A stretch of 64,000 nt of DNA from contig JABAQZ010000016.1 of NCBI GenBank assembly GCA_019187405.1, positions 62,001 to 126,000 on the forward strand, written 5' to 3'. This stretch comes from Ignavibacteria bacterium (lineage in GTDB: Bacteria > Bacteroidota > Ignavibacteria > Tepidaquicellales > Tepidaquicellaceae). The position numbers and the translations under genes were made by a program. The notes beneath the pieces are model-generated. The model was not told the origin of the DNA. It worked only from the letters and a program-made list of their open reading frames with translations, and did not search any database. Shown one piece after another: positions 40,825 through 44,536 of the stretch (positions are counted from its first letter, which is position 1; the number at the start of each line of letters is the position of its first letter).

Positions 40825-40857
40825 AAAGGGAACAATTCCGCCGGAATTATTCCCTTT
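40825..40857 (-). terminator. Terminator of the CADD-like gene
   Basis: AAAGGGAA and AATTCCG (40825-40840) are mirrored by CGGAATT and TTCCCTTT (40842-40857) with one mismatch. On the minus strand ATTTTTAT follows. It lies about 20 bases past the CADD-like stop and separates it from the next gene. Confidence 0.85.
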
Positions 40858-40877: not shown

Positions 40878-41567
40878 TTAATTCACGCAATAATTTTTAT
40901 AAACACCATCCAGAAAATTCCACATAAGTGTTGCGGATTCATTAACAGTATTAATTAATCTCCTTTGGTCTTCAGATGAAAGATCTTTTTTAACAATCAG
41001 ATCGATTTCATCCTTTGAGTGATACACATCAGCTTCTTCGTGCACCGTGAAGAATTTTACTGCTTTATCTGAATCAATCCCGTAAAATTTCTTTAATCCG
41101 TCGATCTTTGTTCTTGATACTTCGGGAACCTGAGATTCATAAGCATAAAGTGATGCAAGCCCTAAGGTATAATCATGCGAGCGTGTAAGCTCGTACATAC
41201 CATCAACAAGATCTTCAACCTCTCTTATCGGCATCGTATTTTTTACTTCATCTTCTTTTAATCCCAAACTATTTGCAAAATCAAGCCAAAGTCTCGGATG
41301 ATCTTCTATCCCGGTCTTAAAGCCTTCTTCATCGGCAAGATTCTCCAGTAAAACTTTTCTGGTATTTACATCATCACAGTTTGAATGTACGCAGCTTACA
41401 AATCTTGGAAAGTGTTTAACAAAATGATAATACTGTTTTGCATATTCCTTAAGTTCGTTTTGAGATAGTTTACCTTCGTTCCATTTTTGATAAAATGGAT
41501 GTTTCAGCAAACTTTTATTTTCAATTGCAGCATTTACTTCTTCTATAAATTTTTCTTTTGAAAGCAT
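40878..41567 (-). CDS. CADD-like diiron protein, probable self-sacrificing pABA synthase
   Basis: This 229-residue protein has the all-helical fold of the TenA/PqqC/heme-oxygenase superfamily and resembles Chlamydia CADD (CT610) along its length: HPFYQKWNEGKLS, CVHSNCDD, LLENLADEEG, YESQVPEVSRTKIDGLKKFYG and HEEADVYH. The metal ligands known in CADD (E81, H88, E142, H174, D178, H181) correspond to E80/81, H90, E144, H176, D180 and H183 here. Tyr27 and Lys152, implicated in making p-aminobenzoate from the protein's own tyrosine, correspond to Y26 and K154. It could therefore supply pABA for folate in a cell lacking pabABC. It follows gcvP by 86 bases and ends at its own terminator. A TenA thiaminase is less likely because the TenA cysteine context is absent. 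Confidence 0.87.
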   Translation of the reverse strand: MLSKEKFIEEVNAAIENKSLLKHPFYQKWNEGKLSQNELKEYAKQYYHFVKHFPRFVSCVHSNCDDVNTRKVLLENLADEEGFKTGIEDHPRLWLDFANSLGLKEDEVKNTMPIREVEDLVDGMYELTRSHDYTLGLASLYAYESQVPEVSRTKIDGLKKFYGIDSDKAVKFFTVHEEADVYHSKDEIDLIVKKDLSSEDQRRLINTVNESATLMWNFLDGVYKNYCVN

Positions 41568-41653: not shown

Positions 41654-44536
41654 TCAGCCGATTTCTTCTACTGCATAATCCGAGATCGGATTACAGCTGC
41701 ATACGAGATTTCTGTCGCCGTATGCATTATCTATTCTGCCAACGGCAGGCCAGAATTTATTCATTGCTAAACCCGAACTGGGGAATGCCGCTTTTTGTCT
41801 TGAATAAGAATGATTCCATTCGTCTGATGTAACATGTCTTGCTGTATGCGGCGCATTTTTCAATACATTGTCCGAAATGTCAGCTTCACCGTTTTCAATT
41901 TCCGATATTTCATCTCTGATTGAAATCATAGCTTCGCAAAATCGGTCAAGCTCCGCTTTGCTTTCACTTTCAGTAGGCTCAAACATTAGAGTACCCGGAA
42001 CAGGGAATGACACTGTCGGAGCATGAAAATTATAATCCATCAGTCTCTTTGCAATATCTTCTACTTCCACCTTTGCCGTCATTTTAAAATTTCTCATGTC
42101 AAAAATAAGTTCATGCGCAACCCTTCCGTTTTTTCCTTCATAAAGTGTTTTATAATAATTCTTTAGTCTGTCTTTAACATAATTTGCATTCAGGATTGCG
42201 GCTTCGGTTGCCTTTTTCAGACCTCTTGCTCCCATCATTTTAATATATGCATAAGAAATGACAAGAATGTTAGGACTTCCATAAGGAGCTGAAGATACCG
42301 CTCCAATGGCTTTGTCTCCTCCTGTTTTAATTATTGCATGTCCAGGTAAAAACGGAATCAGATGTTCTGCAACTGCAATCGGACCCATTCCAGGTCCTCC
42401 GCCTCCGTGTGGAATGCAAAATGTTTTGTGTAGATTAAGGTGGCAGACGTCAGCGCCTATCATTGCCGGACTGGTAAGTCCTACCTGTGCATTCATGTTT
42501 GCTCCATCCATATACACCTGTCCGCCGAATGAATGAATTATGTTGATTATTTCCGTAATTGTTTCTTCAAAAATTCCGTGAGTAGAAGGATATGTTACCA
42601 TTAATGCTCCCAAGCTGTCCTTATACTGCTCTGCTTTTTTCTTAAGATCATCGATATTAATGTTACCTTCATCATCGCTGTTTACTACCACTACTTTCAT
42701 TCCTGCCATCACTGCACTTGCGGGATTCGTTCCGTGTGCTGAAGAAGGGATTAGACATATATTTCTATCTTCCTCTCCTTTGCTTTTATGATATTCTCTG
42801 ATAACCATCAGCCCGGCATATTCACCCTGTGCGCCGGAATTTGGCTGAAAAGAAATACTTCTAAATCCCGTGATCTTACACAAGTCGTCCGCCAATTCGT
42901 CGATGATTTTTTTATATCCTAAAGCCTGCTCGGATGGAACAAACGGATGTATCTCACCGAATTCCGGCCAGGTAAGACCTTCCATTTCAGCTGTCGCATT
43001 CAGCTTCATTGTACATGAACCAAGCGGTATCATCGATGAAGTAAGTGACAGATCTCTGTTTTCGAGATTTTTTAAATATCTCAACATCTCTGTTTCCGAT
43101 CTGTATTTATGAAAAACAGGATGCAGCATGTAATTGCTTTTTCTTCTGAATTCATCTGAAATAATATCCGGATAGAATTCTGCAATGTCATCTAATGAAA
43201 CCGAATCTTTTTTCAAAAGCTCTGCAAAGATCAATGTAATTTCTTTTATATCTTCAATGTTTGTCGTTTCACTGATAGAAATTCCTGCGCCGTCTTCAAA
43301 GTATCTGAAATTTACTCTTCTGCTTTCGGAAAGTTTTTTTAAATGAGATATCTTTTCTTTGTCCAGAGATATTTTAAGTGTATCAAAGAAAATTTTATTT
43401 TCCTGATTTAAGCCAAGTTTTTTTAAAGAGGTCTCAAGAAGTGATGTCAAACCATGAATTCTTTCGGCAATTTTCTTTAATCCATCAGGTCCGTGATATA
43501 CGGCATACATTGCTGCGACAATTGCAAGCAATACCTGAGCAGTGCAAATATTACTCGTAGCTTTTTCTCTCTTAATGTGCTGTTCTCTCGTCTGAAGAGC
43601 CATTCTGTAAGCAGGATTTCCATGCTTGTCAATCGACACGCCAATGATTCTGCCGGGTATATGACGTTTAAATTCATCCTTTGTTGCAAAATATGCCGCA
43701 TGCGGACCGCCGTATCCCATTGGGACGCCAAATCTTTGAGTTGAACCAACAACACAATCAGCGCCGAATTCACCCGGAGGAGTTAAAAGAAGCAGACTCA
43801 TTATGTCAGCTATTGCAATGGTAAAAATGTTTTTGGAATGAGCGTCTTGAAAAAATTCTTTGTAACTATAAACAGCGCCATTCCCCGACGGGTATTGTAC
43901 AAATACTGCAAAGATATCTTCTGTCAGTTTAATATTTTTGAAGTTACCGGTCAACACTTTAATTCCGGCAGATTCTGCCCGTGTTTTAATTACGTCAATT
44001 GTCTGCGGAAAGCACTCATCAGAAACGAATACCGATGTTGCATTTTTATTTTTCTTAATATGATTAAACATTAACATTGCCTCTGCGGCGGCTGTCCCTT
44101 CATCGAGAAGCGATGCATTTGCAATGTCCATTCCTGTGAGATCAGTTACCATGGTTTGAAAATTCAGCAAAGCTTCCAGTCTGCCTTGTGAAATTTCAGC
44201 CTGATAAGGAGTATATTGAGTGTACCAGCCCGGATTCTCAAGTATGTTTCTTAAAATCACACCCGGAGTAATTACGGGATAATATCCCATTCCAATATAT
44301 GACTTGTATATTTTGTTTAAAGAAGCTGTTTTTTTTAAATTATTCAGAAACTCGAATTCACTTTGAGGCGGGTCCAGTTTAAGGACTTCATTTAATTTGA
44401 TATTTTCCGGTATTGTCTCATTGATTAATTCATCAAGACTTGATACGCCAATTACATCAAGCATTTTAGAAATTTCATTATCATCCGGTCCGATATGTCT
44501 GTTTTCAAAAATATCGGGATGCATAAATTGTGTCAT
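41654..44536 (-). CDS. gcvP: Glycine dehydrogenase (decarboxylating), P-protein
   Basis: GcvP is the PLP-dependent P-protein of the glycine cleavage system. It decarboxylates glycine and loads the methylamine on the lipoyl H-protein. The 960-residue length is that of a fused P1-P2 enzyme. The PLP-lysine motif [33 protein letters not shown] and [14 protein letters not shown] are intact. The N-terminus has the usual [15 protein letters not shown]- and T-protein genes are not in the window. A folate link (THF is the acceptor in the cycle) with the CADD-like gene 86 bases downstream is suggestive. Confidence 0.98.

What the first reader, a model, noticed from the sequence alone, without database searches (positions are those of the whole stretch)
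40878..41567. CADD homologue with every residue needed for self-sacrificing pABA synthesis
In Chlamydia, CADD replaces the chorismate route to p-aminobenzoate, using its own tyrosine as source and a lysine as amine donor at a metal centre. Here the protein aligns with CADD end to end, and Y26, K154 and the six metal ligands (E80/81, H90, E144, H176, D180, H183) occur with nearly constant spacing to CADD numbering. The gene lies 86 bases after gcvP, whose glycine cleavage cycle consumes tetrahydrofolate. A folate link in a free-living Bacteroidota relative would extend this odd enzyme beyond its usual hosts. CADD residue roles are established knowledge recalled from memory; the transfer to this protein is inference.
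Basis: partly seen in the sequence, partly recalled or inferred. Interest (0 to 1): 0.78.

Follow-up and report, generated by a model that had tools for sequence, protein, structure and literature searches.

The report
Self-sacrificing pABA synthase in Ignavibacteria
A free-living bacterium that has lost the chorismate route to vitamin B9 carries an enzyme that very probably makes the missing building block (pABA) by cutting up one of its own tyrosines, a rare trick known from Chlamydia and Nitrosomonas.

Summary
The 229-aa ORF is a full-length member of NCBI's CADD family (TIGR04305, 279 bits, cut-off 200). Its model superposes on CADD at rmsd 1.3 A over 214 residues. Y26, K154 and all six metal ligands map exactly onto CADD Y27, K152, E81/H88/E142/H174/D178/H181. 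Tyr and Lys are kept in 106 of 106 homologues aligned.

The host genome (Ignavibacteria, 98% complete) has folB, folK and folP but no chorismate-binding enzyme (so no PabB) and no chorismate synthase. Across 296 genomes of the phylum, CADD and chorismate-binding enzymes nearly exclude each other (22 of 24 CADD genomes lack the latter; 5 of 272 others do; p about 2e-26). Best mechanism: O2- and metal-dependent excision of the Y26 side chain with K154 as amine donor, letting a bacterium without chorismate make folate from acquired tyrosine.

It is a new member of a known kind: NePabS (Nitrosomonas) already showed this outside Chlamydia. gcvP-CADD is probably one transcription unit, conserved only in close relatives. 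The most novel lead lies outside the window: a compact (~185 aa), uncatalogued CADD subfamily that keeps Tyr, Lys and ligands (D to E) and never co-occurs with full-length CADD.

The parts
40878..41567 (-). CADD-family (TIGR04305) self-sacrificing p-aminobenzoate synthase, 229 aa
41490..41492 (-). codon of Y26, predicted sacrificed tyrosine (CADD Y27, NePabS Y25)
   Evidence: mapping, coordinates; roles from PMC11965152
41106..41108 (-). codon of K154, predicted amine donor (CADD K152, NePabS K159)
   Evidence: role from PMC11965152
41328..41330 (-). codon of E80, metal ligand (CADD E81)
41298..41300 (-). codon of H90, metal ligand (CADD H88), after the clade-specific 3-residue insertion
41136..41138 (-). 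codon of E144, metal ligand (CADD E142)
41019..41042 (-). codons 176-183 with ligands H176, D180, H183 (CADD H174, D178, H181)
41654..44536 (-). gcvP, glycine dehydrogenase (960 aa), directly upstream of the CADD gene, same strand, 86-base gap
   Evidence: order kept next to CADD in 5 relatives
40825..40857 (-). intrinsic-terminator-like hairpin (15 pairs, then ATTTTTATAT) 20 bases after the CADD stop; closes the likely gcvP-CADD transcription unit
   Evidence: consensus match, not proof

Best explanation
The protein is the p-aminobenzoate synthase of an Ignavibacteria species that cannot make chorismate. Like CADD and NePabS it is a seven-helix heme-oxygenase-like dimetal oxidase. A dimetal centre held by E80, H90, E144, H176, D180 and H183 activates O2; an oxidising equivalent travels through aromatic residues to Y26; the Y26 side chain is cut off (leaving Gly) and oxidised to the benzoate; K154 gives the amine. 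Each protein molecule makes at most one pABA, enough for folate. Because the ring comes from a ribosomally incorporated tyrosine, the cell can make folate without the shikimate end-pathway, from tyrosine it takes up. Shown here: family, fold, residues, absent chorismate genes, present folate genes and heme-copper oxidase genes. Inferred from the characterised homologues: the chemistry. Inferred: tyrosine uptake, and metal use. The Y143/F172 pair matches the NePabS F148Y variant, which worked about equally with Fe/Fe and Mn/Fe (PMC11965152).
For: TIGR04305 279 bits against PqqC 61, BesC 53, TenA 31. Residue mapping, and Tyr, Lys, H90, E144, H176, H183 identical in 106/106, E80 in 105/106, D180 in 104/106. 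AlphaFold2 model pLDDT 96.5; CADD 1rcw Z 31.6, 214 residues, rmsd 1.3, against PqqC Z 28.4, rmsd 1.9. No PF00425 and no AroC in the own genome; folP, folB-folK and COX1 present. Phylum-wide exclusion CADD vs PF00425 and CADD vs AroC. 50 CADD genomes in many phyla: none with PabB over the TIGR00553 cut-off (a test of limited sensitivity); the nine nearest relatives have no match at all. fol genes near CADD in 12 of 80 loci of other taxa.
Against: No activity measured. The gcvP neighbourhood breaks in L044, L046 and OLB5-like genomes. Three genomes of one genus in the same family (G180, G397, G434) lack any CADD match, and G180 also lacks PF00425 and AroC yet keeps folK, so some relatives live without either route. 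The genome is a 38-contig draft; absences could in part be gaps, though the pattern repeats over many genomes.
Confidence: 0.9

Rival explanations
1. A heme-oxygenase-like dimetal oxidase of the CADD lineage that has drifted to another small-molecule reaction; the cell takes up pABA or folate from neighbours.
For: Fold and ligands are shared by many HDO enzymes with different reactions. G180, a family member, keeps folK with neither CADD nor PF00425, so outside supply is thinkable.
Against: The sacrificial Tyr and Lys, not needed by other HDOs, are invariant; CADD presence tracks loss of chorismate enzymes; folate synthesis genes retained.
Confidence: 0.07
2. A TenA thiaminase II or PqqC-type cofactor enzyme misread as CADD.
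For: Pfam PF03070 TENA/THI-4/PQQC matches at 98 bits; PqqC is the second-best fold.
Against: TenA 31 bits (cut-off 130), PqqC 61 bits (cut-off 240), CADD 279 bits (cut-off 200); the best structural match is CADD at 36% identity against 18% for PqqC.
Confidence: 0.01
3. It is a pABA synthase, but a minor or O2-dependent back-up: under anoxic growth the cells use another, unseen pABA source.
For: The known reaction needs O2 (PMC11965152), and Ignavibacteria are, from general knowledge, often facultative anaerobes. Some relatives lack both routes.
Against: COX1 genes in all 30 genomes tested; no chorismate, hence no classical back-up.
Confidence: 0.15

Closest known systems
CADD / CT610 of Chlamydia trachomatis (PDB 1rcw, 8va9)
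   Same: Fold (Z 31.6, rmsd 1.3), all six ligands, Tyr and Lys, Y143 = CADD Y141
   Different: 36% identity; F172 replaces CADD Y170; 3-residue insertion between ligands 1 and 2; next to gcvP, not in a fol cluster; host lacks chorismate synthase
NePabS (NE1434) of Nitrosomonas europaea (PMC11965152; most likely PDB 9pj4)
   Same: Best PDB sequence match (E 2.7e-49); Tyr25/Lys159 proven sacrificed there; F172 = F177; gene beside a one-carbon gene (glyA there, gcvP here)
   Different: Y143 instead of F148; no insertion in NePabS between E and H; NePabS has an extra stretch before the first metal helix
TIGR04305 'CADD family putative folate metabolism protein'
   Same: Scores 279 bits over cut-off 200, full length
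   Different: Subclade with insertion (11 sequences) not described in the sources read
PqqC, TenA, BesC, UndA (other heme-oxygenase-like enzymes)
   Same: Shared helical fold
   Different: Much weaker sequence scores; about 16-21% identity

Membership tests
Self-sacrificing pABA synthase (CADD/NePabS, TIGR04305) | Score over the curated family cut-off, full length | tested here: met
   279.2 bits, cut-off 200, profile 1-211 of 212
Self-sacrificing pABA synthase (CADD/NePabS, TIGR04305) | Sacrificed Tyr and amine-donor Lys at CADD Y27/K152 positions | tested here: met
   Y26, K154; 106 of 106 homologues
Self-sacrificing pABA synthase (CADD/NePabS, TIGR04305) | 3-His/3-carboxylate dimetal site | tested here: met
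   E80, H90, E144, H176, D180, H183
Self-sacrificing pABA synthase (CADD/NePabS, TIGR04305) | Heme-oxygenase-like fold matching CADD | tested here: met
   Z 31.6, 214 residues, rmsd 1.3
Self-sacrificing pABA synthase (CADD/NePabS, TIGR04305) | Host makes folate but lacks the chorismate route to pABA | tested here: met
   No PF00425, no PF01264; folP, folK, folB present
Self-sacrificing pABA synthase (CADD/NePabS, TIGR04305) | O2- and metal-dependent pABA formation with Tyr-to-Gly and Lys-to-aminoadipate | not testable with these tools
   needs purified protein
PqqC | Score over the PqqC equivalog cut-off | tested here: not met
   61 bits, cut-off 240
TenA thiaminase II | Score over the TenA equivalog cut-off | tested here: not met
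   31 bits, cut-off 130
BesC | Score over the BesC equivalog cut-off | tested here: not met
   53 bits, cut-off 500

The most novel reading that the evidence does not exclude
Besides full-length CADD there is a second, compact self-sacrificing pABA synthase subfamily of about 185 residues (22 of 391 genomes of the class, some in the window's own family). It keeps the Tyr, the Lys and six candidate ligands with changed spacing (E-x2-H) and Asp replaced by Glu, scores far below the CADD cut-off, and replaces full-length CADD genome for genome. Together the two forms let shikimate-less free-living bacteria build folate from acquired tyrosine.
Probability: 0.5. Interest if true: 0.65.

Novelty: new member of a known kind. 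Interest (0 to 1): 0.52.

Why it matters
It gives a concrete reason for an otherwise wasteful enzyme: one protein spent per pABA, but folate synthesis is freed from chorismate. In this phylum, 20 of 24 CADD-bearing genomes have also lost chorismate synthase, so pABA made from protein tyrosine looks like the primary route in a whole group of free-living bacteria, not a quirk of intracellular parasites. The Y143/F172 pair, the family majority, predicts metal use that differs from both enzymes studied so far. The compact subfamily is a small, natural test of which parts the reaction needs.

Tried and rejected
A folate or glycine riboswitch near the gene: no Rfam match. Promoter scan at chance level. 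A general gcvP-CADD link: found only in near relatives. Consistent folate neighbours for the compact form: only one folE, 1.1 kb away in G109. The compact form was not folded, because its loci came from a tool whose sequences the structure tool does not list as admissible. The 2014 mBio paper on CADD (PMC4161248) and the Ignavibacterium album genome paper are not held in the library. The TIGR00553 cut-off is a weak test of PabB absence, since only 4 of 14 controls exceed it; PF00425 was used for the main argument.

Full report
WHAT IS THERE. The ORF at 40878-41567 on the minus strand encodes 229 aa. It hits TIGR04305 'CADD family' at 279 bits (cut-off 200) over profile positions 1-211 of 212; PqqC, BesC and TenA models score 61, 53 and 31 bits against cut-offs of 240, 500 and 130. 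Pfam gives Haem_oxygenas_2 and TENA_THI-4. In the PDB the best sequence matches are 4-aminobenzoate synthases (9pj4, 1rcw, 8va9). An AlphaFold2 model from 51 admissible sequences has mean pLDDT 96.5. Its best structural matches are the CADD structures (Z about 31, rmsd 1.3 over 214 residues, 36% identity), then PqqC (Z 28.4, 18% identity).

RESIDUES. In an alignment of 106 proteins that includes CADD and NePabS, Y26, E80, H90, E144, K154, H176, D180 and H183 fall on CADD Y27, E81, H88, E142, K152, H174, D178 and H181. Tyr, Lys, H90, E144, H176 and H183 are identical in all 106; E80 in 105; D180 in 104. The deviations at E80 and D180 are all in the two compact proteins described below. Two aromatic positions set metal choice in the studied enzymes: CADD has Y141/Y170 (Mn/Fe), NePabS F148/F177 (Fe/Fe), and the NePabS F148Y single variant works about equally with either (PMC11965152). 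The window protein has Y143/F172, like that variant. This is the family majority: Y143-equivalent Tyr in 102 and F172-equivalent Phe in 99 of 106. A 3-residue insertion between E80 and H90 marks 11 sequences (window, G271, L039-L047); in the model it sits in the loop between helices 67-81 and 90-100.

HOST GENOME. The window lies in a 3.78 Mb, 38-contig genome, 98.1% complete. Named near relatives (L039-L045, 66-85% identity) are mostly labelled Ignavibacteria. It has no PF00425 match, although all 14 control genomes ring, so no PabB, TrpE or MenF/EntC-type protein was found. It has no chorismate synthase. It has folP, folB-folK and two COX1 genes, so it can build the pterin half of folate and probably respires O2, which the CADD reaction needs. 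The only PF01063 protein scores best against branched-chain aminotransferase models, under every cut-off.

EXCLUSION ACROSS GENOMES. In 296 genomes of the phylum, 24 carry a CADD over the cut-off and 27 lack PF00425. 22 of the 24 CADD genomes lack PF00425, against 5 of 272 others (Fisher p about 2e-26; about 3e-6 with families counted once). Some table rows were not printed, and those genomes were identified by elimination from the printed positives. 20 of the 24 also lack AroC. G164 and G208 have AroC but no PF00425; G275 and G280 have both AroC and PF00425 beside CADD. Of 50 CADD-bearing genomes from many phyla, none has PabB over the TIGR00553 cut-off and the nine nearest have no match at all; since only 4 of 14 controls exceed that cut-off, this second test is weak.

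NEIGHBOURHOOD. gcvP lies 86 bases upstream on the same strand. The strongest terminator-like hairpin of the region (15 pairs) begins 20 bases after the CADD stop and none is found between the two genes, so gcvP-CADD is probably one transcription unit. The pair is adjacent in L039, L040, L041, L043 and L045 and interrupted in L044 and L046. In G271 and OLB5 the neighbours differ. Of 80 loci of named genomes, folP lies near CADD in eight and folK in seven of these, including Rickettsia, Bdellovibrionales and Planctomycetota, and folE in four from the freshwater SAR11 (Fonsibacter) group (group by tree position).

HOW IT MOST LIKELY WORKS. The chemistry is transferred from the proven homologues (PMC11965152; review PMC13108848): O2 activation at the dimetal site, radical transfer to Y26, cleavage of its side chain leaving Gly, oxidation to the carboxylate, amination from K154. 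New here is the setting: a free-living bacterium with no detectable chorismate synthase. It presumably acquires tyrosine (inference), puts it into this protein by translation, and gets pABA without chorismate.

COMPACT SUBFAMILY. G109 and G160 lack full-length CADD and PF00425 but have folK. They carry about 185-aa relatives scoring around 75 bits with TIGR04305. A class census with these two found 22 genomes with the compact form and about 100 with the full form, never both (chance of no overlap about 0.001 ignoring kinship). Five compact cases lie in the window's own family. Nineteen aligned compact proteins all keep Tyr13, Lys121, E65, H68, E111, H142, E145 and H148. All 17 scanned match TIGR04305 (first member 75 bits against the cut-off of 200), and their closest solved structures are CADD and NePabS. 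Whether they make pABA is untested, and PF00425 status is known for only two of these genomes.

LIMITS. No biochemistry; draft genomes; one genus of the same family (G180, G397, G434) has neither CADD form and, in G180, no PF00425 or AroC while keeping folK. That is unexplained.

VERDICT. Observation confirmed; interpretation supported and strengthened by the absence of chorismate synthase; new member of a known kind, since the enzyme outside Chlamydia was already proven in Nitrosomonas.

Noticed in passing
L126-L145 (e.g. L126:1501-2055 +, L131:1501-2055 +): Compact (~185 aa) CADD-like subfamily with invariant Tyr, Lys and six candidate ligands, below the TIGR04305 cut-off, never in the same genome as full-length CADD.
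   Followed up: partly
G180, G397, G434 (genus g2 of the window's family): No CADD of either form; G180 also lacks PF00425 and AroC but keeps folK. Source of pABA unexplained.
   Followed up: no
own genome G000: No chorismate synthase and no chorismate-binding enzyme: expected auxotrophy for aromatic amino acids, and an open question how menaquinone is obtained.
   Followed up: partly
L029:3183-3536 (L146:12296-12973): folE (GTP cyclohydrolase I) lies about 1.1 kb from the compact CADD gene in G109, with one opposite-strand gene between.
   Followed up: partly
L139 / L153:8715-10678: Compact CADD gene next to DAHP synthase and 3-dehydroquinate synthase genes, so that genome keeps part of the shikimate pathway.
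   Followed up: no
window:36507-40429: Two tandem TMEM260-like (PF11028) membrane proteins downstream of the CADD gene; a similar membrane protein also lies next to CADD in G271 (L028:2363-3646), where gcvP does not.
   Followed up: no
L056, L088, L095, L114, L117: Rickettsia-type loci carry folP within 6 kb of CADD, and folK too in all but L095.
   Followed up: partly
L102 (JAGFIZ010000019.1): MAG titled Bradyrhizobiaceae carries the same CADD as G232 of the window's class, on a contig of which 54163 bases is also the length of G232's contig: the submitter's label looks wrong.
   Followed up: no
22 cyanobacterial loci, e.g. L065, L078, L091: Cyanobacterial CADDs (mostly Microcoleaceae) form one well-supported clade; the genomes tested have PabB/TrpE-family proteins, so CADD coexists there with chorismate enzymes.
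   Followed up: no
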